From Pedobacter frigoris (lineage in GTDB: Bacteria; Bacteroidota; Bacteroidia; Sphingobacteriales; Sphingobacteriaceae), in NCBI RefSeq assembly GCF_005116445.1, contig NZ_SWBQ01000001.1, forward strand, positions 930,001 through 994,000: DNA of 64,000 nucleotides, given 5' to 3'. Shown here piece after piece: positions 33,643 to 60,997 of the stretch; the first letter of the stretch is position 1, and each line of letters opens with the position of its first letter. Under the pieces are notes generated by a model that made no database searches, was not told the DNA's origin, and was given only the letters and a program-made list of their open reading frames with translations. The translations under genes and the position numbers were made by a program.

Positions 33643-33643
33643 A

Positions 33644-37408: not shown

Positions 37409-38026
37409 TTACGGCTTTTCCCAATTCCCGGATTCAGGATTGTAAAGTTTAATTATTCTGGCAGGATTGCCAGCTACGACGGAATATGGAGGAATACTTT
37501 TAGTGACAATCGACCCTGCGGCTACAACCGAGTGTTTTCCAATGGTGATTCCGGCTGTAATTACGGCATTTGCACCTATCCAGCATTCATTTTCAATAGT
37601 AATTAAGGCAGTAGATACCGGTTGCTTCAGTATTGGAAGGTTAATGTTTTGATACTCATGGTTTAATCCGCTCATTACCACGTTTTGCGCGATAATAACA
37701 TCATCTCCTATTGAAACAGGACCGATGACAACATTTCCCATTCCTATCAATGTATTGTCGCCGATGGTCACAGCGCCTACTCCGTTGTTGATCGTGGTAA
37801 AGTCTTCTATCACAGCGTTTCTGCCCAGCATAAATTCATTGAATGGCAGCACATCCATTCTGGTACTCCACCTGATTTTACTTCCTTTTTTTCGCTTATG
37901 AAAAAACGGATTAACAAACCAGGAAACCCATAATCTCGGCCTCGCTTCATTAGTTGGAATCAGCAGCCAATGAATTATTTTCTTTATTTTAGGGTTGTTT
38001 TTGGCAAATTGAAGAACTGATTTCAT
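37409..38026 (-). CDS. Left-handed beta-helix acyltransferase of the EPS locus
   Basis: This protein is about 205 residues from the ATG at 38026. A longer frame reaches 38125 but would overlap the divergent TolC-like start, and its first 33 residues show no domain. Hexapeptide repeats at about 85-190 (for example VIEDFTTINNG, VTIGDNTLIGMG, VSIGDDVIIAQN, VVMSGLNHEYQN, ITIGKHSVVAAGS) form the left-handed helix of the CatB/WbbJ-type acetyltransferases. The HxY-like histidine in SGLNHEYQN would be catalytic. It probably acetylates a sugar or its precursor. It is on the opposite strand to the rest of the EPS genes. Confidence 0.87.
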   Translation of the reverse strand: MKSVLQFAKNNPKIKKIIHWLLIPTNEARPRLWVSWFVNPFFHKRKKGSKIRWSTRMDVLPFNEFMLGRNAVIEDFTTINNGVGAVTIGDNTLIGMGNVVIGPVSIGDDVIIAQNVVMSGLNHEYQNINLPILKQPVSTALITIENECWIGANAVITAGITIGKHSVVAAGSIVTKSIPPYSVVAGNPARIIKLYNPESGNWEKP

Positions 38027-38084
38027 GACTTCCGACGTATATTGATAATGTGGTACAATATTAGCATATTTTGTACAAGAACTA

Positions 38085-38092
38085 TATATTTG
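38085..38092 (+). promoter_or_regulatory. -7 promoter element of the EPS operon
   Basis: TATATTTG fits TAnnTTTG and lies 20 bases before the TolC-like ATG at 38112. No convincing -33 element was found at the expected distance. Confidence 0.42.
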
Positions 38093-38111
38093 AATTTTAC
38101 TATATTTATTT

Positions 38112-38816
38112 ATGAATAATAACAAGTCTTCTCTATTAAGTTTCTTGATATTTTTACTGAGTATTACTCAATTAACATCTGCAACTGCCCAGGAGAGTGT
38201 CTTGAGTGAAGTTTCAAATCTTTATTTAGAAAAGCTCATTGCGGCTGCGAAGGCTAATTATCCCCGAGTAAGAAATTTTGACAGTCAGATTAATATTGCA
38301 AAAAGTGATGTGACTGCAGCTAAAATATCATGGCTTGACCCATTCTCTTTTCAATACGTCACCAGATCTGACAATTCTGCAAACACAGTATTACCAAATG
38401 TAAGAACGTCCGATTTTTTAACAGGTTATCAGGTTGGTATTACTTTTAATCCTGGCCAGTTCCTTGCTAAGCCCAGTGCGGTTAGAAAAGCGAAGGAGCA
38501 GGTTAAATTAGCAGAATCCAATCAGGCAGAGTATTTTCTTCAGCTGGAATCGCTTGTTAAGTCAAGATACTTCCTCTATGTTCAATACCAGAAATCGTTG
38601 CTCCCTGTAACTAATGCGTATAATGATGCTGAAAGTAGTTTTAAGTCTATTAAGACGAAATATCAAAAAGGGGAGGCGACTTTTCTTGAATTTAATAGTG
38701 CATCAACAGCATTGAATCAGGCAATCCAGACTAAGTTACAAGTTGAGGCAAGTTATTTGAGTGCTAAAGCTTCTTTAGAAGAATTAACAGTGATAAGGTT
38801 AGAGAATATAAAATAA
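38112..38816 (+). CDS. Half-length TolC-like outer-membrane factor
   Basis: This 234-residue protein has a signal peptide ending TATAQ and is then one TolC-type repeat: the N-terminal helix with RNFDSQINIAKSDVTAAKISWLDP, a short strand region (GYQVGITFNPGQF), then long helices (KAKEQVKLAESNQAEYFLQLESLVKSRY cut into two parts) and a KYQKGEATFLEFNSASTAL segment. Normal outer-membrane efflux proteins are 400-480 residues with two such repeats. The stop shares one base with the Wzc-like gene start (TAATG), so it is coupled to polysaccharide export. It may act as an outer-membrane exit for the polymer. No Wza-type polysaccharide export protein is in the window. Confidence 0.82.
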   Translation: MNNNKSSLLSFLIFLLSITQLTSATAQESVLSEVSNLYLEKLIAAAKANYPRVRNFDSQINIAKSDVTAAKISWLDPFSFQYVTRSDNSANTVLPNVRTSDFLTGYQVGITFNPGQFLAKPSAVRKAKEQVKLAESNQAEYFLQLESLVKSRYFLYVQYQKSLLPVTNAYNDAESSFKSIKTKYQKGEATFLEFNSASTALNQAIQTKLQVEASYLSAKASLEELTVIRLENIK

Positions 38817-40957
38817 TGAATGAAGTCAATAAATATTTAAGCTTTTTAAGAAAGTACAGATTTACGGTAATTGTTGTACCAGTTATTGTAATCATCATTA
38901 CTTTTTTTCTCGTCCGTAATCTGCCTACTTCTTATGTCTCACAGGCACAGATTACCTCCGGAATTGTAGATGAAACCCAACAACAATCTGCGCTTATTGA
39001 GGCTGTGCAGGGAGATCAGGTGAGACAGCAGTTTAGTAACCTGATCGAGATGATGAAATTAAAGAGGGTAGTGGATCAGGTATCTTACCAGCTCATCATT
39101 CATGACCTTACAACAACGGATCCTTTTAAACCAAGAAGTAAACTATTTGCTAGCCTCAATAAAGCTGCTAAAGAACATGCTTTAAAAGTATACATGGAAA
39201 AGTATGCAAACGCTGAGAGTCTGAATCTTTCAAATCCTGACCAGAACGGTTTATTCCTTGTATTAAAATCTATGAGGTATGACGCTGAATCTATTAAGGA
39301 AAAACTACTGATATACCGTTCCGGGGATAGTGATTTTATCATGGTACAGTTCGAATCGGAAAGTCCTGAGCTGTCTGCCTTTGTCGTAAATAGTTTGTCA
39401 TCCGAGTTTATAAAAAATTATACTTCTGTTTTAAGAAACAATCAGGTTAAAGCACATAACTTTTTGCGCGATTTGCTGAAAGAGAAAAGTGATACCCTTG
39501 CTGATAAAATGGCTGCGTTGAGGAACTATAAGATTAAAAACAGGGTTCTGAATCTTACAGAACAGTCCAAGCAATTGTACGAAAGGATTTTGGAATATGA
39601 TGCCAAGAAACAGGAAGCAATAGAAAAGACAGCCTCGTATGCAGGAGCTTTAAGTGAAATTGACAGGAAGTTTGATCCGAAGGAGAGAAAATACATTGAG
39701 TCGACACTCTCTAAAGTGAACCAGTCAATCGTAAATACAAGAGATGAACTGAATTCTGTATATAACCTGTATATCAGTAATGATCTTGATGAAAAATATA
39801 AACACGCATATGATTCATTAAGGAATAAATTGAATAGCGAAATAGACAGATCTTCTGATCAGTACATTACAAATCCACTGAATACCAAACAGGAATTGAT
39901 CACTCAAAAACTAAACCTGGAGATCCAGATGGATCTTTCCAGATACAGCATCAATTCCCTGGAGAATAAAATCAATTCATTGAATGGTCAGTTTGATAAG
40001 CTGGTGCCTAGTGAAGCTGATGTGCAGACTTTGGAGTTAAACGTCGATATTGCCAGTAAAGAATACATGGATATATTGAACAGATATAACCAAAGCAGCC
40101 TGGAATCTTCATTCTCAGCAAAAATGGATGTTGTGCAGCCCGGAACCCCCGGTATGGCGCAACCCTCAAAAAAGATGCTGCTGGTTATACTTAGCGGGAT
40201 CATCAGTTTTGTATTTTGTCTGCTGGTCATATTTATCATTTATTTCTTCGATACAAGTGTGGTTTCTGCCAAAGAACTTGCCGACCAAACAGGAATTCCT
40301 GTGTTTGGAAATGTCAATTACTTAAATATGCCTTCGCTGGATATTAAGGAAATCTGGCAAAAAAATAATCTCCCGACTCCTTTACAGGAACTGAAAAATG
40401 AACTGCGATCATTGAGATATGAGATAGAGAAGGAATTAAAAGGTAAGGTATTGCTGGTAAACAGTCTGCGTGCCGGAGAAGGAAAGTCTTTTATCACCAT
40501 GAGCGTGGCTTTTGCCTGGGTGATGATGAATAAAAAAGTACTGGTGATTGATGGAAATTTTAATCATTCTAATACAAATACCAATGGATCTGCCTTTTTA
40601 GAAGACATTATAAGTGGTTCTGGTTCTTTGCAGTTGTCACCCGATGAGGCTTCTTTAAAAGTTTTAAAGAACAAAGGTGGTAATTCCTCCATTCTTGAGT
40701 TGGCAGATAAAGCGACTGTTATTGCTAAGCTAAATGAGCTTAAGCAGCTTTTTGATGTTGTTATTATTGAAACACCAGCTTTAGGGTCTATCAACCAGGC
40801 TAAAGAATGGATGCTTTTTGCAGATGGTATTGTTTCGGTATTTGAATCAGGCTATCAAATAGGCGAAACAGAAAAAGAACAGATCAACTACCTGAAACAA
40901 ACGGGAATATTTATGGGGTGGATTATGAACAAGGTCGTTTCCAAAAAAACAATATGA
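38816..40957 (+). CDS. Wzc/GumC-like polysaccharide co-polymerase with degenerate BY-kinase domain
   Basis: This 713-residue inner-membrane protein has two membrane helices (about 16-34 and 452-475) around a large periplasmic coiled-coil Wzz domain (about 35-450). The cytoplasmic part (about 530-713) has a Walker A LRAGEGKSF near 551 and Walker A' VLVIDGNF in place of the usual DxDxR. The Walker B-like VVIIETPAL is also altered, and there is no tyrosine-rich C-terminus. Chain-length control and export are clear roles. Tyrosine kinase activity looks doubtful. It is coupled to the TolC-like gene upstream and to the glycosyltransferase downstream. Confidence 0.88.
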   Translation: MNEVNKYLSFLRKYRFTVIVVPVIVIIITFFLVRNLPTSYVSQAQITSGIVDETQQQSALIEAVQGDQVRQQFSNLIEMMKLKRVVDQVSYQLIIHDLTTTDPFKPRSKLFASLNKAAKEHALKVYMEKYANAESLNLSNPDQNGLFLVLKSMRYDAESIKEKLLIYRSGDSDFIMVQFESESPELSAFVVNSLSSEFIKNYTSVLRNNQVKAHNFLRDLLKEKSDTLADKMAALRNYKIKNRVLNLTEQSKQLYERILEYDAKKQEAIEKTASYAGALSEIDRKFDPKERKYIESTLSKVNQSIVNTRDELNSVYNLYISNDLDEKYKHAYDSLRNKLNSEIDRSSDQYITNPLNTKQELITQKLNLEIQMDLSRYSINSLENKINSLNGQFDKLVPSEADVQTLELNVDIASKEYMDILNRYNQSSLESSFSAKMDVVQPGTPGMAQPSKKMLLVILSGIISFVFCLLVIFIIYFFDTSVVSAKELADQTGIPVFGNVNYLNMPSLDIKEIWQKNNLPTPLQELKNELRSLRYEIEKELKGKVLLVNSLRAGEGKSFITMSVAFAWVMMNKKVLVIDGNFNHSNTNTNGSAFLEDIISGSGSLQLSPDEASLKVLKNKGGNSSILELADKATVIAKLNELKQLFDVVIIETPALGSINQAKEWMLFADGIVSVFESGYQIGETEKEQINYLKQTGIFMGWIMNKVVSKKTI

Positions 40958-42135
40958 TATTATACAATTATTTATGGATTGCGTTGCAGCTTTTGATAGG
41001 CTTTAATCTTGTCTTTCCTTTTTTTTTGTATGTTCTTTGGAAAATAAGGTTGATTTTTCAAAAAAGACAACCTGAAGTACCGCTTACAGAACAGGCAGAT
41101 TATGCCATTATTGTCACTGCGTATCAGCAGACAGATATGCTTCCTTATGTTGTCTCTTCTATACTGAAACTTAATTATTCAAATTATCTGATTTATGTGG
41201 TGGCCGATAATTGTGATGTTAGCGGCCTTGATTTTAATGATGAAAGGGTAGTTTTACTGAGACCTCCTGAAACATTGGCAAGTAATACAAGATCTCATTT
41301 CTATGCCATCAATCATTTTCATCGCCCTCATGAAAGACTGACTATAATCGATAGTGATAACCTTGTTGAACCAGAATACTTAAATGAATTGAATCATTTG
41401 TTTAACAAGGGCTTTAAGGCTGTACAGGGCGTCAGAAAAGCTAAAAATCTTGATTCTACATTTTCTTGTCTCGACGCTGCCAGGGATATTTATTATCATT
41501 TTTATGATGGTAAGGTTCTTTTTGAACTGCAGTCGTCGGCTACGCTGTCGGGTTCCGGGATGGCATTTACTACAGCTTTATATAAAGAATGCCTTGAACA
41601 TCTGGATATAACCGGTGCAGGGTTTGACAAAGTGCTTCAGGCCGAAATACTTAAACGTAATTATCGTATTGCCTTTACTGAAGATGCTGTAGTTTATGAC
41701 GAGAAGACATCAAGATCTGATCAGCTGGTAAAACAAAGGGCGAGGTGGATCAATACCTGGTTTAAGTATTTTAAATACGGTTTTACGATCCTGGGCACAG
41801 GACTTCAGCGTATGAGCATCAATCAGATTTTATTTGGGATAGTTTTACTGAGGCCACCCTTGTTTATGTTTATTTTAGCCTCCGGACTTTTCTTATTGAT
41901 CAATATTTTTATTTCCTTAACCGGAGTTTTGATATGGGCTGGCGCATTTTTCCTTTTTGCACTCGGCTTTTATATCGCTCTGTTGCATTCAAATGCTGAT
42001 TCCAGAATATATAAGTCTTTAATAAATATTCCGAAGTTCATTTATTTTCAATTGATTTCCCTGCTTAAAAGCAGAAACGCAAATAAAACTTCAATAGCGA
42101 CTACTCACTATCACGGTCCTGTAAATGATAATTAG
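40954..42135 (+). CDS. Family 2 glycosyltransferase, membrane-bound
   Basis: This protein is about 394 residues from the ATG at 40954, which overlaps the Wzc stop by 4 bases. A further upstream ATG (40918) would add 12 residues inside that gene. It has an N-terminal membrane helix, then a GT2 domain with IIVTAYQQTDMLPYVV, the DxD-type IIDSDNLVEP, a substrate loop and the QRARW motif of processive-type enzymes (KQRARWINTW). At least three C-terminal helices (LLRPPLFMFILASGLFLLIN) follow. It probably adds or polymerises sugars in the exopolysaccharide. The exact donor is unknown. Confidence 0.88.
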   Translation: MILYNYLWIALQLLIGFNLVFPFFLYVLWKIRLIFQKRQPEVPLTEQADYAIIVTAYQQTDMLPYVVSSILKLNYSNYLIYVVADNCDVSGLDFNDERVVLLRPPETLASNTRSHFYAINHFHRPHERLTIIDSDNLVEPEYLNELNHLFNKGFKAVQGVRKAKNLDSTFSCLDAARDIYYHFYDGKVLFELQSSATLSGSGMAFTTALYKECLEHLDITGAGFDKVLQAEILKRNYRIAFTEDAVVYDEKTSRSDQLVKQRARWINTWFKYFKYGFTILGTGLQRMSINQILFGIVLLRPPLFMFILASGLFLLINIFISLTGVLIWAGAFFLFALGFYIALLHSNADSRIYKSLINIPKFIYFQLISLLKSRNANKTSIATTHYHGPVNDN

Positions 42136-42286: not shown

Positions 42287-42299
42287 CAGGAGTGGTTTG

Positions 42300-43766
42300 A
42301 TGGAAGCAAGTTCAAAACTGTCTTTGATAGATAAAATTACACCGGTAAGGCTCCTGATAGCATTATCTTTAGTATCAGTATTCTGTTTATTAGGAACCTG
42401 GTACCTCGGGATGAATTTTATCCTTATGGCCATTATCGTTGTCATAGGCATCCCTTTCTCAATAGCAATCGTCGTGTATCCAAAATTTGGCGTGCTTGTG
42501 CTCCTGGTCTCCGCATACCTGATCATGTGGGTCATGAGGTTTAATTTCGACTTTCCCCTCGGTACGCTCATGGATGGCTTGGAATTGCTGTTAATTATTG
42601 GATTCTTTATCCACCAGAAAATCCATCGCGACTGGGCAATTCTAAAAAATCCTATCACTTTTATGATCCTGATCTGGATAGGATATAATATTTTGCAGGC
42701 ATTTAATCCGGTAGCAGAATCTAAGCTGGCCTGGTTATATACCATCAGATCTGTAGCCATAGTAATGCTTACCTATTTCATATTTATGGTTCAGATCAAG
42801 TCTGTAGCATTCATCAGGCTGATATTCAAGGTATGGATAGGACTGTCACTCTTTGCAGCCTTATATGCATTCAAACAGGAGTATTTTGGTTTTTTTGCTT
42901 TTGAAGAACGAAGTCTTGATAGCCCGCTGATGCGTGAACTTTTATTCATAGGCGGTCACTGGCGCAAGTTCTCGATATTTTCCGATCCTGTAGCTTTTTC
43001 TTACAATATGGTTGTAAGTGCCATTCTTTGTCTCGTTCTGGTGCTTAGTGTCAAAAAAACCTATAAAAAAGCCATTTTGATTTTTCTGGTAGGGTTCTTT
43101 TTATTGAATATGCTCTATTCAGGTACACGTGGTGCCAACCCGCTGTTTCCGGCAGCTGTATTTATGCTGGCTATATTAAAGTTCAATTACAAAGTGCTTG
43201 GGTTTTCGTTGCTCGGACTTGTTTTTCTTGTTTTTCTGATATTTATGCCTAGTTCTAATCAGAATATTTTAAGGTTTCAGTCTGCATTCCGACCGTCAGA
43301 TGATGCGTCATTTAACGTGAGGAAAATTAACCAGAAAAGAATTCAGCCATTTATTCAGCAGCATCCGTTTGGCGGCGGACTCGGTGCAACCGGTACATGG
43401 GGTGTAAGGTTTGCTCCAAATTCATACCTGGCTCATTTCCCACCTGATAGTGGTTATGTGAGGGTTGCAGTAGAATTGGGCTATGTCGGATTATTTATTT
43501 TTTGTACACTCATCTTTATCATATTGAGAACAGGTATTAGAAATTACTTTACGATAAAGGATCCTGAGCTCAAGAACTATTGTTTGGCTATGGTATTAAT
43601 AGTGTTTGCTCTGGGTATAGGAAACTACCCTCAGGAGGCCCTGGTCCAGTTTCCGGTAAGTGTTTATTTTTACCTCATTGTTGCGCTCATAAACATCACA
43701 CTGATTCTGGATAAGCAAAAGGAAAAGTCAAAATTATTAGCAGAGAACTCAAATGGAATTCATTAG
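42300..43766 (+). CDS. O-antigen ligase/polymerase (Wzy-like) membrane protein
   Basis: This protein is about 488 residues from the ATG at 42300. An AGGAG at 42288-42292 is a rare Shine-Dalgarno-like sequence at good distance and supports this start. It has about 12 membrane helices and one long periplasmic loop with the conserved HPFGGGLGATGTWG and PDSGYVRVAVELGYVGL motif of the Wzy_C/WaaL family. The family joins repeat units into polymer or attaches it to lipid A. Placement beside a Wzx flippase and a Wzc-like protein favours polymerase. The stop overlaps the next gene by 14 bases. Confidence 0.88.
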   Translation: MEASSKLSLIDKITPVRLLIALSLVSVFCLLGTWYLGMNFILMAIIVVIGIPFSIAIVVYPKFGVLVLLVSAYLIMWVMRFNFDFPLGTLMDGLELLLIIGFFIHQKIHRDWAILKNPITFMILIWIGYNILQAFNPVAESKLAWLYTIRSVAIVMLTYFIFMVQIKSVAFIRLIFKVWIGLSLFAALYAFKQEYFGFFAFEERSLDSPLMRELLFIGGHWRKFSIFSDPVAFSYNMVVSAILCLVLVLSVKKTYKKAILIFLVGFFLLNMLYSGTRGANPLFPAAVFMLAILKFNYKVLGFSLLGLVFLVFLIFMPSSNQNILRFQSAFRPSDDASFNVRKINQKRIQPFIQQHPFGGGLGATGTWGVRFAPNSYLAHFPPDSGYVRVAVELGYVGLFIFCTLIFIILRTGIRNYFTIKDPELKNYCLAMVLIVFALGIGNYPQEALVQFPVSVYFYLIVALINITLILDKQKEKSKLLAENSNGIH

Positions 43767-44952
43767 CGGAAGGGATATTGTTATTGTAGGATTGCAGCCC
43801 TGGGATACTGAAATAGGCAGCAACTGTAAGAATATTGCTGTAGAATTCAGTAAGCACAATAGGGTATTGTACGTAAATTCTCCGTTAGACAGGATTACAA
43901 CTTTGCGCAATAAAGAAGATAAAAACGTCCGGAAGAGATTAGAAATTTTAAAAGGAAACCAAAGCAATCTGGAAGAGATACAGGAGAATCTTTGGGTATA
44001 TTATCCTGATGTAATCATAGAGTCCATCAACTGGATTAAAATCGACCTGCTATTTGACATCCTGAATAAAAGGAACAACAGAAAGATTTCAGCAGCTATT
44101 GAAAGGGCCATGCGCAAGCTTGAATTCAAGGATGTGATCCTATTCAATGACAATGACATCTTCAGAAGTTTTTATTTAAAAGATTATCTGAAACCTTCAG
44201 TGAGCGTTTACTACTCCAGAGACTATTTGCTCGGTGTGGATTATTGGAAGCATCATGGCAAGCGTCTGGAGCCTGAGCTTATGGCTAAAAGTGATATTTG
44301 TGTAGCCAACTCCAATTACCTAGTTGGTTTGTGCAGGAAGTTTAACCCGAACTCGTACTATGTAGGACAGGGATGTGAGGTGGAATTGTTTCTCCATGCA
44401 AATGATTTACCTATCCCACATGATGTTGAGGCGATTCAAGGGCCAAGGATTGGATATGTCGGTGCGCTCCAGTCACTGAGACTTGATTTGGAAGTGATCA
44501 GATTTATGGCAAAGGAAAGGCCAGGCTATCAAATTGTTCTTGTCGGTCCCGAAGATGATGAGTTTAAAAGCAGTGATCTGCATCAATTGACTAATGTTCA
44601 TTTCCTGGGATCAAAAAAGCCTGATGAACTTCCAGGCTATATAAATGCTTTTGATGTCTGCATTAATCCTCAGCTGGTTAACGAGGTAACAATAGGAAAT
44701 TATCCAAGGAAAATCGACGAATATCTTGCTGTTGGAAAACCAACTGTGGCTACCAAAACTGAAAGTATGCAGGTCTTTGCAGACTATGTTTACCTTGCAG
44801 AGAATAAACACCAGTACCTGGAATTGATCGACAAGGCAATTAATTCCAACAATGAATCACTTGTCAGCGAAAGGAAAGCTTTTGCTTCAGGACACACCTG
44901 GGAAGCTAGTGTAGAGTTAATTTATAGTGCAATTGATGATAGCTTAAAATAA
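43753..44952 (+). CDS. GT4/GT1-like glycosyltransferase (GT-B fold)
   Basis: This 399-residue cytoplasmic protein has an N-terminal Rossmann half (IVIVGLQPWDTEIGSNCKNIA) and a C-terminal half with the donor-binding features RIGYVGALQSLRLDLEVI, VLVGPEDDE, HFLGSKKPDELPGYINAFDVCINPQ and YPRKIDEYLAVGKPTVAT. The last segment includes the acidic residue in K-x-D-E-Y-L-A that contacts the sugar nucleotide. It overlaps the polymerase gene by 14 bases, so it is in the same operon. It is not a classical GT1 and probably uses a sugar nucleotide donor of unknown type. Confidence 0.85.
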   Translation: MEFISGRDIVIVGLQPWDTEIGSNCKNIAVEFSKHNRVLYVNSPLDRITTLRNKEDKNVRKRLEILKGNQSNLEEIQENLWVYYPDVIIESINWIKIDLLFDILNKRNNRKISAAIERAMRKLEFKDVILFNDNDIFRSFYLKDYLKPSVSVYYSRDYLLGVDYWKHHGKRLEPELMAKSDICVANSNYLVGLCRKFNPNSYYVGQGCEVELFLHANDLPIPHDVEAIQGPRIGYVGALQSLRLDLEVIRFMAKERPGYQIVLVGPEDDEFKSSDLHQLTNVHFLGSKKPDELPGYINAFDVCINPQLVNEVTIGNYPRKIDEYLAVGKPTVATKTESMQVFADYVYLAENKHQYLELIDKAINSNNESLVSERKAFASGHTWEASVELIYSAIDDSLK

Positions 44953-44953
44953 A

Positions 44954-46036
44954 ATGACTGAAACTCTTTCTAAAAATGTTGTATCCCGAATAGATTCTAT
45001 TGATTATCTGCGTGGTCTTGCTGCATTGAGCATCCTAGCTTATCATATGTATCTTTTTAATTTTGGTGAAGTAGATTCATCCAGTATCCTTGGTAAGTTT
45101 AAAATCTATGGAGTATCGATTTTCTATATTCTTAGTGGAATCACGTTGTATGTAGTGTATAAAGACAGGCTACACCTCAAAAAGAAAGATCTCCTGGAGT
45201 TTTACATCAAAAGGTTTTTTAGGTTGGTTCCCTTACTATGGCTGGTCACACTGCTTACAGTATTGCTTCAATACAATCCGGAGATTATGTCTTTGAAAAA
45301 GATCATTCTAAATATTACCGTACTGCCTGGTGCAATAAAACCGGAAGGCTTTATTGCAAGTGGTGCATGGTCGATAGGCAATGAAATCTTTTTTTATCTC
45401 TTTTTCCCCTTTATGATATTCCTGATTCGGTTTAAAAGGCCTTTTATTTTCCTGTTTTTGGCGGCAGCCCTGGGCTTTTTAATTTATTTTACATTTTACG
45501 TTTTAGACCCCGCAGTTCCATTGGGCTTCCAGTGGTCTGCCTATGTAAATCCCCTCGGGCAGTTTTTCTATTTTATCACTGGAATAGCACTTGGAATACT
45601 CGGAAAATACATACCTCAGCGTAAGCTTGTCTATCTGCTTTTCTTTGGTCTTTTTTTCTTTTTATTTGCTTATTACCATGTTCAGGGAGAGCCGGTTATG
45701 CTCGTTACGGGAGTAGCCAGGATGGTCCTTTCTGCATATGTAGTATTGTTGTGCCTGTTCTTCTATAAAACTGATTTTAGCGGATTTGCACCTGTTCTGA
45801 AAACTTGCATGCAATTTCTGGGTAATATCAGTTACTCGCTATACTTATTGCACCCAATTGTATACTTTGTAGTTAAAACATCATTGGGAATGGCCGGAAT
45901 AGAGTCTATATCCGTTGTAATTTCTTGTACTGTTGTGTTTTCATTATTTTTTGCATACTTAAGCTATGTTTTTGTTGAACAGACCTTTATCGAAATCGGA
46001 AAGAGGTTTGTTAAAAGAATTGGCTATAAAGTTTAA
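44954..46036 (+). CDS. Acyltransferase 3 (OafA/YrhL-type) membrane protein
   Basis: This 360-residue protein has about ten membrane helices. The family's start motif SIDYLRGLAALSILAYHMYLF contains the conserved R-x-x-A and His, and SGAWSIGNEIFFYLFFPFM and the late VFVEQTF are further signatures. It probably adds an O-acyl group (acetyl or similar) to a sugar of the growing polysaccharide. It begins one base after the preceding stop, so it is in the same operon. Confidence 0.92.
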   Translation: MTETLSKNVVSRIDSIDYLRGLAALSILAYHMYLFNFGEVDSSSILGKFKIYGVSIFYILSGITLYVVYKDRLHLKKKDLLEFYIKRFFRLVPLLWLVTLLTVLLQYNPEIMSLKKIILNITVLPGAIKPEGFIASGAWSIGNEIFFYLFFPFMIFLIRFKRPFIFLFLAAALGFLIYFTFYVLDPAVPLGFQWSAYVNPLGQFFYFITGIALGILGKYIPQRKLVYLLFFGLFFFLFAYYHVQGEPVMLVTGVARMVLSAYVVLLCLFFYKTDFSGFAPVLKTCMQFLGNISYSLYLLHPIVYFVVKTSLGMAGIESISVVISCTVVFSLFFAYLSYVFVEQTFIEIGKRFVKRIGYKV

Positions 46037-46103
46037 TATTCTTAAGTAAATAATCAGATCTATAACTATATTTCTTGCTGATAAGAAATATCCATTTTAC
46101 CAA

Positions 46104-47432
46104 ATGCTAAAGAATCTAGGACAAAAACTTAAAAACAAACATTTTCTATCGCTTACTACGAGCGTAGTGATGTCTGCGTGTGGCATGCTCACATTCATGC
46201 TTTTGTTGCGGTCCATGCATGCAGAGCAAATGGGATACTGGATCTTTTTTCAAACGGCTTTTATGCTGTTAGATACACTCAGGACAGGTTTTCTTCAAAC
46301 AGCGCTTATTAAATTTTATTCTGGTGCGGAAAAGCAAAGAGCAGCAGAAGTAATGGGCTCTGTATGGTTTTTGGCTTTCATAATTACCGCATTTTGGTTG
46401 ATTCTCACAATTCCTGCACTATTTTTACTCCCATTCATTGAAGATACCAGTATAAAAATCCTGATAGAATGGTTTGCATTTATCTTTATCCTTACCCTTC
46501 CATCAACAATTTCTACATGGAGGCTACAATCTGATCAGAAATTTGATAAGCTGTTGTACCTGGGGTTGCTTACCCAAGGTTCTTTTTTGATATTGATCAT
46601 TATACTTATCCTAACCAGCAACATGAACATCACAAATCTGCTCTATGCTGATGCGCTGGCTTACATCATTTCCAGTTCTGTATGTTTAATCTTCGGCTGG
46701 TCGGGAATCAGGTTTTTTGCACGACGTACCAAAGAGACCATAAGGGAGGTTTATCACTTTGGTAAATTCAGCGTGGGCACTTCTATAAGTACCAATCTCT
46801 TGCGGAGTTCAGATATTTTTATGATCAACTTTTTGCTGGGGCCTGCATTATTACCGGTTTATAATGTCGCTCAGAGATTAATGGAGGCTGTTGAGATTCC
46901 GCTAAGGAGTTTTCTCGTGACCGGGATGCCTGAACTGTCTACTGCCTTTAACCAGAAAAGGAATGATGACGTGGTTTCAATTATGAAAAAATACTCAGGC
47001 ATGCTTACTTTAGCTCTAATACCTGTAGCTATAATAGGGATCTCACTTGCTGATGTTGCAGTAGCAATTCTGGGGGGAGGGAAGTATGTGGGGACTGATG
47101 CAGCAAATGTATTCAGGATATTTATGCTGCTTTCCATTGTTTATCCTATAGATAGATTTACCGGCGTTACATTAGATATCATACATCAGCCAAAAAGAAA
47201 CTTTATAAAAGTCATTATCATGCTGGTTATCAACGTTGTTGCAAACTACATCGGTATCAAACTATTTGGTAATTTATATGGCGTAGTGTTCAGTAGCGTG
47301 TTGTCGTTCTCTGTCGGAGTCTGCTACAGTTATTTTTCATTAAGGGAGTTTCTGTCATTCAATGTTTCAGGTATATTGAAGACTGGTTTTTACGAATTGA
47401 AATACTTATATCTAAAGGTCGTAAAGGGATGA
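46104..47432 (+). CDS. Wzx-like lipid-linked oligosaccharide flippase
   Basis: This 442-residue protein has about 12-14 membrane helices of MATE/MOP type, with the N-terminal MSACGMLTFMLLLRSMHAEQMG and a central SVGTSISTNLLRSSDIFMINFLLG. It translocates undecaprenyl-diphosphate-linked repeat units to the periplasm for the polymerase. It follows the acyltransferase gene by 67 bp and its stop overlaps the next start (ATGA). Confidence 0.9.
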   Translation: MLKNLGQKLKNKHFLSLTTSVVMSACGMLTFMLLLRSMHAEQMGYWIFFQTAFMLLDTLRTGFLQTALIKFYSGAEKQRAAEVMGSVWFLAFIITAFWLILTIPALFLLPFIEDTSIKILIEWFAFIFILTLPSTISTWRLQSDQKFDKLLYLGLLTQGSFLILIIILILTSNMNITNLLYADALAYIISSSVCLIFGWSGIRFFARRTKETIREVYHFGKFSVGTSISTNLLRSSDIFMINFLLGPALLPVYNVAQRLMEAVEIPLRSFLVTGMPELSTAFNQKRNDDVVSIMKKYSGMLTLALIPVAIIGISLADVAVAILGGGKYVGTDAANVFRIFMLLSIVYPIDRFTGVTLDIIHQPKRNFIKVIIMLVINVVANYIGIKLFGNLYGVVFSSVLSFSVGVCYSYFSLREFLSFNVSGILKTGFYELKYLYLKVVKG

Positions 47433-48280
47433 AACTTGCGCATATCATACTTGCACATAGCAAGCCACTTCAGTTAAGGCGGTTAATCGACAGTTTGCAA
47501 GACGAGTCAGTTAAATCATTCGTCCATCTTGATGCCAAATGTAATGCTGATGAATATGATTTGCCAAATGAACAGGGATTGGAAATGATAACACCTAGGT
47601 TTGACGTAAGTTGGGGAGGTTTTAGTCAGGTAATGGCCATTGTATCTTCAATAAGATGTGTTTTAAACTCCGGTGAGGTTTACGATTATATTAATTTAAT
47701 CAGCGGACAGGATTATCCATTAAAACCAGTGTCTGCCTTTAAGGCTTTTTTGGAAAAGAATGCCGGAAAGATTTTTATGGAATTTCATTTACCCGGACAT
47801 GCATGGGTAAAAGAGGCAATACAAAGGATTTCAAAATATCACTTCACAGATTTTAAATTCAAAGGAAGGTATTTGCTGGAACGCATTATCAATACATTAA
47901 TACCTGCCCGTAAAATCCCAAAAGATTTCACCATCATAGGGCACTCTACGTGGTTTACTATAGATTGGGAATCAGCGCTGTATGTTGTGAAATTCTTTGA
48001 TGAAAATCCATCTTTCATTAGGAGGTTTAACTACACTTGGGGTGCAGACGAACTACTGATCCAGAGTGTTTTATTTAATTCTCATTTACGGTCAAAAATT
48101 GTCAATGATAACCTGAGATACATAGATTGGTCAGAAGGGAAAGCTAGTCCCAGGATTTTAACTATGGCTGACGCTAAAAACTTAAGGGATACCAATTGCT
48201 TCTTTGGAAGAAAATTTGATATGGAAATTGATCAGGATATTGTAGATTATCTCGATACACAAGCGCTAAAAGTAATATGA
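47429..48280 (+). CDS. GT14-type N-acetylglucosaminyl/xylosyl-transferase
   Basis: This 283-residue protein shows the core-2/I-branching family features: KLAHIILAHSKPLQLRRLI at the start, the SGQDYPLKP motif near 92, and WFTIDWESALYVVKF followed by WGADELLIQSVLF. These glycosyltransferases transfer beta-1,6-GlcNAc or xylose in eukaryotes. The bacterial members act in EPS or LPS synthesis with uncertain specificity. It is translationally coupled on both sides (ATGA overlaps with the flippase and with the next gene). Confidence 0.9.
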   Translation: MKLAHIILAHSKPLQLRRLIDSLQDESVKSFVHLDAKCNADEYDLPNEQGLEMITPRFDVSWGGFSQVMAIVSSIRCVLNSGEVYDYINLISGQDYPLKPVSAFKAFLEKNAGKIFMEFHLPGHAWVKEAIQRISKYHFTDFKFKGRYLLERIINTLIPARKIPKDFTIIGHSTWFTIDWESALYVVKFFDENPSFIRRFNYTWGADELLIQSVLFNSHLRSKIVNDNLRYIDWSEGKASPRILTMADAKNLRDTNCFFGRKFDMEIDQDIVDYLDTQALKVI

Positions 48281-49266
48281 ATTCAAAAAATCTGATTCTG
48301 CTATCTTACGGAAACAAGACAGAATATAATAGAACTATATTCTGCGTGCTGAGTTTTTGGGCCCATTACACCGGAAATACAGAAAAAATAAGGATCATTA
48401 TCTATACAGACAATAAGGATTACTTTGAGCCTTTCTTTAACAAAATAGAGGTATCTTATGTGACATTAACACCAGAGATCCTCCAGGATATGCTTGCAGG
48501 AAGTACTTATATACACCGGCGCAAAGTTGCGGTTATCGACCTGACATTAAAACAACATCCCGGAGAAGATCTGATATTCGTTGATTCGGATACCTTTTTT
48601 ACTAAAAATCCACAACCATGGATAGCGGCATTAAAACCTGATATGAGTTATATGCATCTAAAGGAATATACTTTTCAGGAAGGTTTAGCCTTATTTTCAT
48701 CGTTTAATCAAAGTAAGGAACCAAAGGCGTTTATAGATTTCCTGGAAAGCCAGCCAGTTAAGATTGGGGGAGAAGACCGTTCCTTCAACAGAAATGATTT
48801 TTGCTGGAATTCAGGAGTACTGGGCCTTACTTCAGATCTGTCAGTTTATATCGACGATGTTTTTGTGATGACTGACGATTTCTTCAAAAATTCTTCATGG
48901 TTTATAAGCGAACAGCTGGCATTTTCATTACTGCTGCAGGATAAAACAAAAGTTTTACCATCCGACGAATATGTTTACCACTATTGGGGCAAACGGCAAA
49001 AGAGGCTGATGGATGGTGTTCTGGAGAAAGTAATTAATGATTTGCCTGCTGAAACTAAAACTAATATTGTCAAACTCACTATCAGATTGGAATCTAAAAT
49101 AGCTGATGATGTGATAAAAGAGCGGGCCGTACTTGCCTTGTTTACTAAAAATTGGGGATATGCTGTGAAAAGAATATTTGCAGCTTTGTTAAAAAATCCT
49201 GCAAATATCAGTTTGTTTAGGGAATGGTCTGAAATGAAAAAATCCAGTGTCCCTGAACACAATTAA
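48277..49266 (+). CDS. GT-A-fold glycosyltransferase-like protein of the EPS operon
   Basis: This 329-residue protein has an N-terminal NLILLSYGNKTEYNRTI segment and a DxD-type metal site IFVDSDTFF near residue 102, followed by FCWNSGVLGL. These resemble GT8/GT77-like nucleotide-sugar transferases. The C-terminal 80 residues are helical. The donor and acceptor are unknown. Its position between the GT14 gene and the NRPS gene places it in the EPS pathway. Confidence 0.75.
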   Translation: MNSKNLILLSYGNKTEYNRTIFCVLSFWAHYTGNTEKIRIIIYTDNKDYFEPFFNKIEVSYVTLTPEILQDMLAGSTYIHRRKVAVIDLTLKQHPGEDLIFVDSDTFFTKNPQPWIAALKPDMSYMHLKEYTFQEGLALFSSFNQSKEPKAFIDFLESQPVKIGGEDRSFNRNDFCWNSGVLGLTSDLSVYIDDVFVMTDDFFKNSSWFISEQLAFSLLLQDKTKVLPSDEYVYHYWGKRQKRLMDGVLEKVINDLPAETKTNIVKLTIRLESKIADDVIKERAVLALFTKNWGYAVKRIFAALLKNPANISLFREWSEMKKSSVPEHN

Positions 49267-49286
49267 ATGCCCAACATTCTAAAAAC

Positions 49287-51866
49287 ATGAGTTTCCAAAC
49301 GATTTATTTAATTGAAAAACAAGCTAAACTTAGTCCGCATAAGAGGGCACTCAGTTACAAGGGGAATCGCTTAACTTATAGTGAATTGAATGGAAGAGCC
49401 AACCAGCTGGCTGCCTTTCTGATTGACAATGGAGCTGTTAAGGAAGGTGTAATCGCTGTTGCAGTGGATCGCTCTGCTGAAATGGTAATCCTGCTGATTG
49501 CAATTTTAAAATCCGGAGCAGCGTACGTGCCTCTTGATCCGGATTATCCTGAAAAGAGATTGGAGTATATGCTGAATGATTCAGCGGCAAGATTTTCAAT
49601 TACTAATAAAAAATACGAGGGAAGAATTCAATCTCAGGCGACAGAGCTGATTCTGGAAGACCTTTGGCAGCAGTCTGAACAATATCCTACAGACGACCCC
49701 GGCGTGGCAATTTCGGAGACCGATCTCGCATACATACTTTATACCTCCGGTTCTACCGGAATGCCAAAGGGTGTCATGATAGAACACAGGAATTTGTTTA
49801 ATCTCCTGACCAGCATGCAGAAATTTCCGGGAATTGATTCAGACGATACTTTACTGGCACTTACTACCATTTCCTTTGATATATCTGTCCTGGAGTTATT
49901 CCTTCCATTTACAGTTGGTGCACACCTGGTCATCACAGATACAGAGGTTACCAAAGATGGTGCAGCTATACTCGAGGAAATAAAACGCAATCACATTTCA
50001 ATTATTCAGGCAACCCCCTCTACTTATAAAATGATGCTGGCTGCAGAATGGAATGAGAAATTCGATCTTAAAGTGTTGTGCTGTGGTGAACAACTACCAA
50101 AAGATTTAGCTGAAAAACTGCTGAGCAGATGTAAGGGACTCTACAACATGTATGGCCCTACAGAAACTACAATATATTCATCAGGCAAACAAATACTAGC
50201 TACAGATGAAGTCATAACCATAGGGTATCCTATACAAAATACGTCAGTTTACATCCTGGATGAACAAAATCATATTTTGTCCGAAGGGGAAACAGGTGAG
50301 ATCAGCATCGGTGGGGAGGGCTTAGCCAGGGGATATTTTAACAAGCCTGAACTTAGTGCTGAAAAATTTATTACCCATGTTCTTCCTGATGATCCGCTTT
50401 ATAGAATTTATAAAACGGGAGATTTAGGCAGGATTTTACCTAATGGAGAAATACAGTGTTTCGGCAGGATTGATCATCAGGTAAAAATAAGAGGGTACCG
50501 GATTGAACTTGGTGAAATTGAATATGCACTTATTCAACAATCAGGCGTCAAAGAAACTGTTGTAGCGCCATGGGATGGACCTAACGGTGATAAAAGACTA
50601 GCCGCTTATATTGTTCCTGAAAACAGACTTTCAAATGAGGATTTTTTGAAACAGATTCCGATATGGAAGGAAGCGCTTAAGGCATCTGTGCCGACTTATA
50701 TGGTACCTGGTGACTTTGTCTTGCTGGAAAAAATGCCGCTTACCAATAATGGAAAAGTAGACAGGAAAGCATTACCCGTTCCAGAAATAAGAGCAAGTCT
50801 GGCCATCGAAGGTGATCAGCCACAAACTGAGATCCAGCAAATTCTGGCCGAGATATGGAAACAACATTTAGGCGTTCATGCTATCGGGATTCATGATAAT
50901 TTTTTTGATCTCGGAGGACATTCTTTAACCGCAGTTAAGGTAATGGTTCGCATAAAAAATAAAATAGGTAAGCAATTGCCACTGGGCACTTTATTTAAAA
51001 ATCCCACAATAGTGGAACTTGCCGAATGTCTGGAGGCCGAACTGCCTCATGCTTCCCCGGAATCTTTAATACCCTTGCAGCCTTTGGGAAAAAAGATGCC
51101 ACTTTATATTATCCATGGCATTGGCTCAACGGTTTTCAAATTCTTTGATTTTGCTCAACAGCTAGGTGAGGACCAGCCCGTTTTTGGCTTGCAAGCGCGG
51201 GGAATTGACGGAACTGAAAATCCCGCAGAAACTATTGAGGAAATGGCAACACAATACATTACGGAAATTCTTAAAAGTAATCCTGACGGACCATACGCAT
51301 TGTCTGGTTATTCTCTTGGTGGATTAATTGCTTTTGAAATGACCAGGCAACTGGAAGCAATGGGAAAAGAAGTCAGGGTTTTGGCTATGTTCGACACTTA
51401 TATTATAAAAAATAACCAGCTTGAACCTGGATTGTATAAATCCATACATAGAGTCACTTCAAGAATAGCCAAGTTTTTCTATACTTTTAGTTTGCTGCTG
51501 GCAGAGCCCAGACGCACCATAGAACATAAGCTTTTTACGATTGCTCAGTCTTTTAAAAAGATGAAGGGCGAAGAGGTAAGGGGTGTTTTGGATGAAGACT
51601 TTGACTTTATCACTAAAGTAGGTGAAGTTCATCGTGCTGCTATTCCAAAGTATAAATTAAAGCCTTACCATGGGGATATTCACTTGTTCAGGGCAAGAAA
51701 GGTAGCTACTTATCTGAATGATTTTAAGTTCCTGGGCTGGAAACCATATGCGAAAGCTGTGCATATTCACCAGATAGATGGAGAGCATGATACAATTTTT
51801 AACACACCCATTAACCGGAAGTTTGCGGATTCCCTGCAAAGGTTATTGGATAATGCAGGGGGATGA
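49287..51866 (+). CDS. A-PCP-TE nonribosomal peptide synthetase-like protein in the EPS locus
   Basis: This 859-residue protein has an adenylation domain at about 10-500: A3 TSGSTGMPKGV near 152, A4 FDISVLELF, A5 NMYGPTETT, A7 YKTGDLGR, A8 GRIDHQVKIRGYRIELGEIE, A10 NGKVDRKAL. A carrier domain follows (about 515-590; phosphopantetheine Ser in LGGHSLTAV near 546). A thioesterase domain (about 605-859) has nucleophile GYSLGG near 673 and the His of DGEHDT near 832. It has no condensation domain. A hand alignment to GrsA gives a tentative specificity code D-I-L-A-L-C-M-I-Y, which starts like that of glycine-type codes (DILQ..) but is not certain. It may activate one amino acid and load it onto a sugar, or onto itself for release. 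A pantetheinyl transferase must be encoded elsewhere. Confidence 0.88.
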   Translation: MSFQTIYLIEKQAKLSPHKRALSYKGNRLTYSELNGRANQLAAFLIDNGAVKEGVIAVAVDRSAEMVILLIAILKSGAAYVPLDPDYPEKRLEYMLNDSAARFSITNKKYEGRIQSQATELILEDLWQQSEQYPTDDPGVAISETDLAYILYTSGSTGMPKGVMIEHRNLFNLLTSMQKFPGIDSDDTLLALTTISFDISVLELFLPFTVGAHLVITDTEVTKDGAAILEEIKRNHISIIQATPSTYKMMLAAEWNEKFDLKVLCCGEQLPKDLAEKLLSRCKGLYNMYGPTETTIYSSGKQILATDEVITIGYPIQNTSVYILDEQNHILSEGETGEISIGGEGLARGYFNKPELSAEKFITHVLPDDPLYRIYKTGDLGRILPNGEIQCFGRIDHQVKIRGYRIELGEIEYALIQQSGVKETVVAPWDGPNGDKRLAAYIVPENRLSNEDFLKQIPIWKEALKASVPTYMVPGDFVLLEKMPLTNNGKVDRKALPVPEIRASLAIEGDQPQTEIQQILAEIWKQHLGVHAIGIHDNFFDLGGHSLTAVKVMVRIKNKIGKQLPLGTLFKNPTIVELAECLEAELPHASPESLIPLQPLGKKMPLYIIHGIGSTVFKFFDFAQQLGEDQPVFGLQARGIDGTENPAETIEEMATQYITEILKSNPDGPYALSGYSLGGLIAFEMTRQLEAMGKEVRVLAMFDTYIIKNNQLEPGLYKSIHRVTSRIAKFFYTFSLLLAEPRRTIEHKLFTIAQSFKKMKGEEVRGVLDEDFDFITKVGEVHRAAIPKYKLKPYHGDIHLFRARKVATYLNDFKFLGWKPYAKAVHIHQIDGEHDTIFNTPINRKFADSLQRLLDNAGG

Positions 51867-58913: not shown

Positions 58914-59828
58914 ATGAGTTCAATATCGATTATAACCGTAAACTTTTTTCAGCCACAGGCTACAATAGAATTGCTTAATTCTTTATATCAATATTATGCT
59001 ATAGCTAATATAGAAATAATTTTAGTTGATAATGGTAGTCCTATTGATAATGAACTTTACTTTAAACGAGATTATCAGAATATCAAATACATACGTTCTG
59101 AAAAAAACTTAGGTTTTGCGGGTGGAAATAACCTTGGAATTGCTCACGCTACGGGAGAGTATCTTTTTCTTATCAATAATGATACAGAAGTTACGCCTGG
59201 TTTGATAGAAACCTTAGCTGATACTTTAAAGAAAAATGAGCGAATCGGCATTATTTCGCCCCAGATCAATTATTTTGATAATAAGAAAATCATCCAGTAC
59301 GCTGGCTTTACGCCAATGGATTATTACACCTGTCGAAATGCCTGCATTGGGCAGTTTGAAACAGATAGCGGGCAATACCATAATAAAATAGAACAAACTG
59401 GTTTTATCCATGGGGCAGCAATGATGATCAGACGCGAAGCGCTGGAAAAGGCAGGTCCTATGGCTGAGAATTTCTTCCTTTATTATGAAGAAATGGACTG
59501 GTGCGAACGCATCAAAGATGCGGGCTATGAGATCTGGGTCGACACCAATGGATTGATCTACCATAAAGAATCGCTTTCTGTTGGTAAAAACAGTGCATTA
59601 AAAGAGTTTTTTATGAACCGCAACAGAATTCTGTTTATAAGACGCAATGCAAAGCCACTTCAGCGCATGGTCTTCTATATTTATTTCATGCTGCTGGTAG
59701 TTCCCAGAAATATGCTAAAATACCTGGCAGCGGGTACTGCTGGTTTCACAAAGGTCTTGTGGTCTGCCATCTTCTGGAACATCCGCAATAAAACAAATAG
59801 CCGGGATTTAGGATTTAGATTAAAGTAA
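58914..59828 (+). CDS. Rhamnosyl-type family 2 glycosyltransferase
   Basis: This 304-residue GT2 domain has SIITVNFFQPQATIELLNSL, the IILVDNGSP and RSEKNLGFAGGNNLGI segments typical of rhamnosyltransferase-like (WcaA/RfbF) enzymes, FLINNDTEVTPG as the metal site, and FFLYYEEMDWCERIKDAGYEI as the catalytic acidic motif. The C-terminal helix FYIYFMLLVVPRN suggests membrane association. It lies next to a second GT2 and probably acts on the same polysaccharide. Confidence 0.88.
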   Translation: MSSISIITVNFFQPQATIELLNSLYQYYAIANIEIILVDNGSPIDNELYFKRDYQNIKYIRSEKNLGFAGGNNLGIAHATGEYLFLINNDTEVTPGLIETLADTLKKNERIGIISPQINYFDNKKIIQYAGFTPMDYYTCRNACIGQFETDSGQYHNKIEQTGFIHGAAMMIRREALEKAGPMAENFFLYYEEMDWCERIKDAGYEIWVDTNGLIYHKESLSVGKNSALKEFFMNRNRILFIRRNAKPLQRMVFYIYFMLLVVPRNMLKYLAAGTAGFTKVLWSAIFWNIRNKTNSRDLGFRLK

Positions 59829-59830: not shown

Positions 59831-60997
59831 ATGAAAATGACATTTTGGGTTTCCCTGTTCCTGGTTTTCTATACCTTCTTCGGCTATGGAATATTATTAT
59901 ATTTCCTCATCAGGATCAAGAGGCTGTTTAAAAAGACACGTAGAAAAATGTCTGGTTTTGACGAGTTGCCGACCTGTACGCTTATTGTCGCTGCCTACAA
60001 TGAGTCTGATTTCATAGAGCAAAAGATTGCCAACACATTACAACTTAACTATCCGCAGGGTAAGCTAGAACTGATTTTTGTCACTGATGGTTCTTCAGAC
60101 AATACTCCGGAACTGGTTGCGAAATATCCTCAGATCAAATTGCTGCATTCGCCCGAACGTAAAGGCAAAATATCTGCGGTACACCGCGCCATAGCTCAGG
60201 TGACCTCTGAGGTGATTGTCTTTACTGATGCCAATACTTTCTTAAACCAGGATGCGCTTGTGCTGATTTGTCGTCATTATGCAGATCAGAAAGTGGGTGC
60301 CATAGCAGGAGAGAAGCGTGTAATGATCGATGAGGCAGCTGATGCTACAGCTGGAGAAGGGTTTTACTGGAAATATGAATCTAAGTTAAAGGAGTGGGAT
60401 TCTGAGTTGTATTCTGTGGTAGGTGCGGCAGGAGAATTGTTCAGCATCCGCAAAAGCCTTTATGAACCTGTTCCCTCAAATAGCGTGCTCGATGATTTTA
60501 TGATCTCTATGCGCATTGCTGAAAAGGGATATGTGATTGTTTATGAACCTGAAGCTTATGCTCAGGAGACGTCTTCGGCAAATATTAAAGAAGAGCTGAA
60601 AAGGAAAATCAGGATTGCAGCCGGCGGAATACAGTCGGTGATTTGGCTAAGTGCATTGCTCAATCCCTTCAGATATCCTCTGCTTTCTTTTCAGTATATA
60701 AGTCACCGCGTACTGAGGTGGACAATCACGCCTTTCCTGATGATCCTTTCCTTTGTTTTAAACGTATGTATCGTAGTGAATGAAGCAAATCCTTTATATG
60801 TCGTTTTACTAGGCGGACAAGTACTGTTTTATCTCTCTGCTTATCTAGGTAAGTTATTGGAAGCACGGAAGCTCAGGGTAAAGATCCTTTTTATACCCTA
60901 TTATTTCTGTGTGATGAATTATGCGGTACTGGCAGGATTGATCAGGTATTTCTTTGGGGAGCAATCTGTGATCTGGGAAAAAGCACAGCGAAAATAG
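59831..60997 (+). CDS. Membrane-bound family 2 glycosyltransferase
   Basis: This 388-residue protein has one N-terminal helix and about three C-terminal helices around a GT2 domain. The markers are TLIVAAYNESDFIEQKI, FVTDGSSDNT, VFTDANTFL and the acidic VLDDFMISMRIAEKGY, followed by RKIRIAAGGIQ in place of QxxRW. It is processive-type architecture, perhaps an EpsH-like transferase. It begins 2 bp after the previous gene, so the two form an operon. A strong terminator follows. Confidence 0.88.
   Translation: MKMTFWVSLFLVFYTFFGYGILLYFLIRIKRLFKKTRRKMSGFDELPTCTLIVAAYNESDFIEQKIANTLQLNYPQGKLELIFVTDGSSDNTPELVAKYPQIKLLHSPERKGKISAVHRAIAQVTSEVIVFTDANTFLNQDALVLICRHYADQKVGAIAGEKRVMIDEAADATAGEGFYWKYESKLKEWDSELYSVVGAAGELFSIRKSLYEPVPSNSVLDDFMISMRIAEKGYVIVYEPEAYAQETSSANIKEELKRKIRIAAGGIQSVIWLSALLNPFRYPLLSFQYISHRVLRWTITPFLMILSFVLNVCIVVNEANPLYVVLLGGQVLFYLSAYLGKLLEARKLRVKILFIPYYFCVMNYAVLAGLIRYFFGEQSVIWEKAQRK

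What the first reader, a model, noticed from the sequence alone, without database searches (positions are those of the whole stretch)
49287..51866. Stand-alone A-PCP-TE synthetase inside an exopolysaccharide operon
All three domains keep their catalytic residues, but there is no condensation domain and no other NRPS gene. It lies directly after two glycosyltransferase genes. It may attach an amino acid to a sugar of the polymer, giving an aminoacylated polysaccharide, or release a free thioesterase product. The hand-read specificity code (D-I-L-A-L-C-M-I-Y) does not clearly match a known amino acid.
Basis: partly seen in the sequence, partly recalled or inferred. Interest (0 to 1): 0.65.

Follow-up and report, generated by a model that had tools for sequence, protein, structure and literature searches.

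The report
Glycine-loading enzyme in slime-polysaccharide operon
A bacterium carries, inside the genes that build its slime polysaccharide, a small stand-alone enzyme that is predicted to pick up glycine and probably attach it to that polysaccharide; relatives keep the same arrangement, so it looks like a real and so far undescribed way of decorating bacterial slime, although the attachment itself is unproven.

Summary
Window 49287-51866 (+) is an intact 859-aa A-PCP-TE protein without a condensation domain. It is the last gene of a ten-gene Wzx/Wzy-type exopolysaccharide (EPS) operon, 20 bp after two glycosyltransferases. Two corrections. The pocket code is DILQLCMIY(K), not DILALCMIY (position 278 was read one residue off); it is close to published glycine codes, and orthologs carry DILQLGMIWK, listed as glycine-activating (PMC12283262). 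The genome also has another NRPS gene: a 3392-aa NRPS-PKS hybrid 90 kb away, whose last module C-A(Gly)-PCP-TE is a close relative.

Relatives tie this enzyme to polysaccharide genes. In one genus of the same family nine loci have the stand-alone protein ending a homologous EPS operon. In the window's genus, 34 of 37 NRPS-type A-PCP-TE modules and five of eight glycine-type stand-alone copies lie within 15 kb of an EPS-locus GT2 gene; none of eight Cys-type copies does. The tree shows repeated loss of the condensation domain. Best reading: glycine (possibly D-Ala) is loaded on the PCP and the TE passes it to a sugar of the EPS precursor. The linkage is strong; the transfer step is inference. 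No acceptor or product is known.

The parts
49287..51866 (+). stand-alone A-PCP-TE synthetase, 859 aa
49314..50756 (+). adenylation domain (AMP-binding + AMP-binding_C), code DILQLCMIYK; D198 at 49878-49880, K490 at 50754-50756
50841..51032 (+). peptidyl carrier protein, phosphopantetheine Ser546 at 50922-50924
51084..51848 (+). type I thioesterase; Ser676 (51312-51314), Asp703 (51393-51395), His834 (51786-51788)
48277..49266 (+). GT-A-fold glycosyltransferase without a Pfam family (P0002), DSD motif; 20 bp before the A-PCP-TE gene
47429..48280 (+). GT14 'Branch' glycosyltransferase
46104..47432 (+). Wzx-type flippase
44954..46036 (+). membrane acyltransferase, AT3 family
43753..44952 (+). glycosyltransferase group 1
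42297..43766 (+). Wzy / O-antigen-ligase-type polymerase
40918..42135 (+). GT2-type glycosyltransferase
38816..40957 (+). Wzz-type chain-length protein with tyrosine autokinase domain
38112..38816 (+). outer-membrane efflux-type (OEP) protein, first gene of the operon
37409..38125 (-). hexapeptide-repeat transferase; homologs lie inside the operon in the sister genus
29350..30441 (+). initiating sugar transferase (Bac_transf); homologs head the operon in the sister genus
58914..59828 (+). GT2a, EPS-locus glycosyltransferase linked to A-PCP-TE genes
59831..60997 (+). GT2b, EPS-locus membrane glycosyltransferase; within 15 kb of 34 of 37 NRPS-type A-PCP-TE modules in the genus

Best explanation
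The protein is a one-enzyme aminoacyl-loading and transfer station dedicated to exopolysaccharide. A Sfp-type phosphopantetheinyl transferase (one is encoded with the NRPS-PKS gene 90 kb away) arms Ser546. The A domain adenylates glycine (D-Ala not excluded) and loads it on the PCP. The TE takes the glycyl group on Ser676 and passes it to a hydroxyl or amino group of a sugar in the EPS precursor, presumably the lipid-linked repeat in the cytoplasm before Wzx flips it, giving a glycyl-ester or glycyl-amide decorated polymer. SHOWN: domain anatomy, intact catalytic residues, position in the operon, repeated linkage to EPS genes. PREDICTED from the code: glycine. INFERRED: that the TE transfers rather than hydrolyses, and that the acceptor is a sugar of this EPS.
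For: Last gene of a ten-gene operon with gaps of -40 to 161 bp. In a sister genus nine loci (L034-L042) have a 47-50% identical stand-alone A-PCP-TE as the last core gene of a homologous EPS operon; in L034 and L037 the ORF overlaps the next GT2 gene. In the window's genus 39 of 40 genomes with a strong non-Cys-type A-PCP-TE match carry GT2b, against 45 of 106 without (Fisher p = 8e-11; related genomes are not independent); 34 of 37 NRPS-type modules and 5 of 8 Gly-type stand-alones lie within 15 kb of it, 0 of 8 Cys-type ones. GT2b is an EPS-locus gene: by the positions it lies within 25 kb of the Wzy homolog in 10 of 13 genomes. P0002 homologs lie within 25 kb of such modules in 16 of 23 genomes. 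Glycine: code DILQLCMIYK versus DILQLGMIWK in orthologs, listed as glycine in PMC12283262; a Cys next to C-alpha also restricts AlmE to Gly and DltA to D-Ala (PMC11253843). EPS operons without the gene exist in close relatives (G178, G201, G100), which suits a decorating role. Precedents: AlmE-AlmF-AlmG glycyl transfer to lipid A (PMC12930378) and the Pks13 TE, which releases its product onto trehalose (PMC9210659).
Against: No acceptor, product or expression data. TE domains of this family mostly hydrolyse or cyclise, and sequence cannot tell transfer from hydrolysis. In the two closest relatives the gene sits by the GT2 pair but not inside the EPS operon: in G248 that operon is about 450 kb away. 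Three of eight Gly-type stand-alone copies in the genus (L053, L056, L057) have no EPS operon genes beside them. The gene is absent from most EPS operons of the genus.
Confidence: 0.47

Rival explanations
1. It makes a small free product: the TE hydrolyses, cyclises or esterifies glycine with a soluble partner, and the EPS operon is merely its regulon (for example a signal produced together with the slime).
For: Hydrolysis and cyclisation are the usual chemistry of such TEs. A-T-TE enzymes that release a free small product from two keto acids are known in fungi (PMC9047271, abstract). AlmE-type adenylates can be diverted into a signalling molecule (PMC12930378).
Against: Repeated recruitment next to glycosyltransferases and EPS genes in separate branches of the tree. 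No exporter or tailoring gene of a small molecule is conserved beside it. D198 is kept, so it is not a keto-acid-type A domain (that defining feature is recalled from memory).
Confidence: 0.22
2. It works in trans with the NRPS-PKS hybrid elsewhere in the genome, supplying a second glycine or releasing its product; the product may or may not be joined to the EPS.
For: Its relatives include the terminal C-A(Gly)-PCP-TE modules of these hybrids (46-49% identity). Hybrid and stand-alone copy sit side by side in G250 and about 10 kb apart in G014.
Against: The two closest orthologs differ: G167 has a hybrid-type module, G248 has none at this threshold; G237 and G231 also have stand-alone copies and no strong hybrid-type match. 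The stand-alone protein has no C domain to accept a chain.
Confidence: 0.17
3. It is a passenger: a copy of a terminal NRPS module that landed in an EPS hotspot and has no role in the polymer.
For: Patchy distribution; many genomes have the same EPS operon without it. Stand-alone copies arose several times by loss of the C domain.
Against: All catalytic residues kept across deep divergence (36-62% identity); same operon position kept in nine loci of a sister genus; decay would be expected.
Confidence: 0.1

Closest known systems
AlmE-AlmF-AlmG glycylation of lipid A (Vibrio cholerae)
   Same: An adenylating enzyme loads glycine on a carrier protein for transfer to a cell-surface glycolipid; a Cys at the pocket position near C-alpha (PMC11253843, PMC12930378).
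   Different: Three separate proteins with an acyltransferase AlmG; here A, carrier and a thioesterase are fused, and the target would be an EPS sugar.
DltA/DltC/DltB D-alanylation of teichoic acids
   Same: NRPS-type A domain and carrier used for surface-polymer aminoacylation; DltA models score strongly but far below their cut-off (319 vs 559.85 bits).
   Different: No DltB- or DltD-like partner in the operon; Gram-negative EPS; fused TE.
Terminal C-A(Gly)-PCP-TE modules, e.g. AB3403 (4zxh) and the family's own NRPS-PKS hybrids
   Same: Same A-PCP-TE order, same Gly-like code, best structural match.
   Different: The condensation domain is missing and the gene stands alone in an EPS operon.
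Single-module NRPSs that esterify an alcohol with an amino acid (AneB, ThmA; fungal)
   Same: One-module NRPS conjugating an amino acid to a hydroxyl (PMC10720950).
   Different: They use a C-terminal condensation domain, not a TE, and terpene alcohols.
Pks13 thioesterase (mycobacteria)
   Same: A carrier-fused TE that releases its acyl chain onto a sugar, preferably trehalose (PMC9210659); it aligns with this TE nearly end to end.
   Different: Long-chain acyl group made by a polyketide synthase, free disaccharide acceptor.

Membership tests
NRPS-like single-module A-PCP-TE protein | A, PCP and TE domains in one chain, no C domain | tested here: met
NRPS-like single-module A-PCP-TE protein | intact catalytic residues of all three domains | tested here: met
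Glycine-activating A domain | pocket code matching known Gly codes | tested here: met
   DILQLCMIYK agrees with the published glycine code DILQLGMIWK at 8 of 10 positions (G301C, W331Y differ); several orthologs are identical to it
Glycine-activating A domain | biochemical activation of glycine | not testable with these tools
   needs ATP-PPi exchange
Canonical peptide-making NRPS | condensation domain in cis or in the operon | tested here: not met
Dlt system | DltA equivalog score over cut-off | tested here: not met
   TIGR01734 319.4 bits against 559.85
AlmEFG system | AlmG-like acyltransferase next to it | tested here: not met
   no such Pfam family among the operon proteins and near neighbours scanned
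Exosortase-A-associated AMP ligase (TIGR03098) | score over cut-off | tested here: not met
   217.8 bits against 592.35
Wzx/Wzy-type EPS operon | initiating sugar transferase, flippase, polymerase, chain-length/tyrosine-kinase protein, glycosyltransferases | tested here: met
   the sugar transferase is 8 kb upstream, not in the operon itself
EPS aminoacylation system | amino acid chemically bound to the EPS | not testable with these tools
   needs EPS analysis in wild type and mutant
Fungal-type A-T-TE acting on 2-oxo acids | loss of the Asp that binds the amino group (recalled from memory) | tested here: not met
   D198 present

The most novel reading that the evidence does not exclude
NRPS chemistry is a general decorating tool for extracellular polysaccharides in this Bacteroidota family: stand-alone A(Gly)-PCP-TE enzymes put single glycines on the polymer, and the linked A-PCP-KS-AT-PCP-aminotransferase-C-A(Gly)-PCP-TE hybrids put on a beta-amino-acyl-glycine unit, their TE domains transferring to sugars instead of releasing free natural products. 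Many clusters now counted as natural-product clusters would then be glycan-modification loci.
Probability: 0.25. Interest if true: 0.78.

Novelty: new variant of a known kind. Interest (0 to 1): 0.58.

Why it matters
Amino acids are known substituents of bacterial surface glycans, glycine among them (PMC10609480), and the carrier-protein routes described in the papers read here (Dlt, Alm) use separate ligase, carrier and transferase proteins. A fused A-PCP-TE in a conserved EPS operon would be a compact one-gene route, easy to test and to use for engineering polymer charge. It would also change how orphan NRPS-PKS clusters in this group are read, since most of those found here sit beside the same EPS glycosyltransferases.

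Tried and rejected
(1) Code reading D-I-L-A-L-C-M-I-Y: rejected, off by one at position 278. (2) The idea that the acceptor is a dTDP-3-amino-sugar, because FdtA/FdtB-like genes were seen near some of the hybrid loci: FdtA is missing from G248, G167, G036, G062 and G051, which have the stand-alone enzyme, so it is not a required partner. (3) GT14 'Branch' as the obligate partner of the window's enzyme: the tree puts the window's GT14 with EPS-operon copies of genomes that lack A-PCP-TE in that operon, while the GT14 genes adjacent to A-PCP-TE in L043, L054 and L066 belong to another clade; the latter pairing may be real for that subclade, but the GT14 clade also occurs without it (G195, G094). 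(4) AT3 acyltransferase as the glycyl transferase: a homolog is in the G248 EPS operon, which has no A-PCP-TE, and nearly all sister-genus operons lack one, so it does not track. (5) First genome-contig scan with the single protein gave nothing; the second, with the alignment, mostly fetched ordinary C-A-PCP-TE modules. (6) Paper searches for NRPS genes in EPS or capsule loci found no report of this arrangement in the held library; absence there is weak evidence. (7) The first GT14 tree was wrong because fetched loci are not strand-oriented; redone.

Full report
WHAT IS THERE. ORF 49287-51866 (+) encodes 859 aa with AMP-binding, AMP-binding_C, PP-binding and Thioesterase domains and no condensation domain. 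D198, K490, S546, S676, D703 and H834 are all present and are invariant in an alignment of 22 sequences. The AlphaFold model (mean pLDDT 85) matches best 4zxh, the AB3403 C-A-T-TE NRPS.

THE OPERON. Ten genes on the + strand from 38112 to 51866 with gaps between -40 and 161 bp: OEP-type protein, Wzz/tyrosine-kinase, GT2, Wzy-type polymerase, GT group 1, AT3 acyltransferase, Wzx-type flippase, GT14, P0002, A-PCP-TE. An initiating sugar transferase lies at 29350. The next gene, 51877-52710, is convergent. That the ten genes form one transcript is inferred from spacing only.

SUBSTRATE. Orthologs have DILQLGMIWK, DILQLGMVWK, DIVQFGMIYK. PMC12283262 lists DILQLGMIWK for glycine-activating domains, and PMC5466765 reads DILQLGVI as glycine. 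The window's Cys at position 301 resembles AlmE C316 (discourages residues larger than glycine) and DltA C269 (clashes with L-Ala) in PMC11253843; the equivalence was judged by spacing, not by superposition. Glycine is therefore likely, D-Ala possible.

RELATIVES AND EVOLUTION. The closest orthologs are in the same genus: G248 (63%) and G167 (54%). A tree of 41 A-PCP-TE regions mixes stand-alone proteins with the last modules of NRPS-PKS hybrids; at least five label changes are forced by well-supported branches, so the C domain was lost (or regained) repeatedly. Window, G248 and G167 form one fully supported clade. The window's genome has its own hybrid, 3392 aa: A-PCP-KS-AT-PCP-aminotransferase-C-A-PCP-TE, followed by a PPTase.

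LINKAGE TO POLYSACCHARIDE GENES. In the sister genus nine loci (L034-L042) have the stand-alone gene as the last core gene of an EPS operon homologous to the window's (Wzz 41-44%, Wzy 48-55%, Wzx 40-44% identity), sometimes followed by GT2a and GT2b with overlapping frames. In the window's genus (146 genomes) GT2b is found in 84. It lies within 15 kb of 34 of 37 NRPS-type modules and 5 of 8 Gly-type stand-alones, but of 0 of 8 Cys-type stand-alones, which act as an internal control. Genome level: 39 of 40 against 45 of 106. GT2b lies within 25 kb of the Wzy homolog in 10 of the 13 genomes that have that Wzy (positions), including genomes with no strong A-PCP-TE match, so it belongs to EPS loci rather than to NRPS clusters. 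P0002 homologs are within 25 kb of a Gly-side module in 16 of 23 genomes (five of the module positions used there come from the weaker threshold). The codes of most of the 37 NRPS-type modules were not read one by one. Species are related, so these counts are not independent trials; but the linkage is seen in several separate branches of the tree. In G201 the GT14 gene is followed directly by the homolog of 51877-52710, so P0002 and A-PCP-TE look like an insertion at this point of the window's operon.

MECHANISM. Shown: anatomy, intact active sites, operon position, recurrent linkage. Predicted: glycine loading. Inferred: TE-mediated transfer of the glycyl group to a sugar of the EPS precursor. 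Fused TE domains that transfer to sugars exist (Pks13 onto trehalose, PMC9210659), single-module NRPSs that esterify alcohols exist (AneB, though by a C domain; PMC10720950), and glycine is a known substituent of bacterial glycans (PMC10609480). No AlmG- or DltB-like partner was seen in the operon.

LIMITS. The window's enzyme is absent from most EPS operons of its genus; in G248 it is near GT2a/b but far from the EPS operon. Three Gly-type stand-alone copies have no EPS neighbours.

VERDICT. Real and conserved, with catalytic residues kept; most likely an EPS-aminoacylating (glycylating) enzyme, confidence about one half; a new variant of a known kind.

Noticed in passing
L058:9411-12549, L059:8492-11744, L060:9143-12293, L061-L065: A second clade of stand-alone A-PCP-TE proteins (about 895 aa) with a Cys-like code DLYDFSLVWK, each followed by a small GNAT-like gene on the same strand, not near EPS genes; eight genomes of the window's genus.
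   Followed up: partly
L056:7703-11719, L057:8153-12070: Stand-alone A-PCP-TE with code DIEQFGMICK beside an aminoacyl-tRNA editing domain protein and a DUF6875 protein in two genomes: possibly an editing partner for a mischarged or diverted amino acid.
   Followed up: no
L001:9501-19679 and L002 (contig C1:1071500-1082405): NRPS-PKS hybrid A-PCP-KS-AT-PCP-class III aminotransferase-C-A(Gly)-PCP-TE plus PPTase; homologs are common in the genus and nearly always beside EPS-locus GT2 genes. Product unknown.
   Followed up: partly
window 56336-58881 (-): A SpoIIE-phosphatase response regulator with STAS and HATPase partners and an unknown 180-aa protein, conserved next to GT2a/GT2b in many relatives; likely a partner-switching regulator of the EPS locus.
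   Followed up: partly
window 53832-56015 (-): DUF4842 protein conserved between the EPS operon and the regulator module in relatives; function unknown.
   Followed up: no
L046:8315-15979: In genome G101 the hybrid NRPS-PKS next to the EPS operon appears broken into fragments while the stand-alone A-PCP-TE in the operon stays intact.
   Followed up: no
L133:3023-19992: In an acidobacterial MAG (Candidatus Sulfotelmatobacter) an 898-aa A-PCP-TE with a different code (DIEDIGTII) sits in a cluster with other A and C-A-PCP-TE proteins, a hexapeptide transferase and a polysaccharide export protein: the NRPS-EPS link may reach beyond Bacteroidota.
   Followed up: partly
window 30564-37210 (-): Large adhesin with Ig/cadherin repeats and a CHU_C sorting domain, PorP/SprF and an OmpA-PD40 protein: a type IX secretion cassette beside the EPS operon; the adhesin/PorP part is also beside the EPS operon in G248 (L093).
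   Followed up: no
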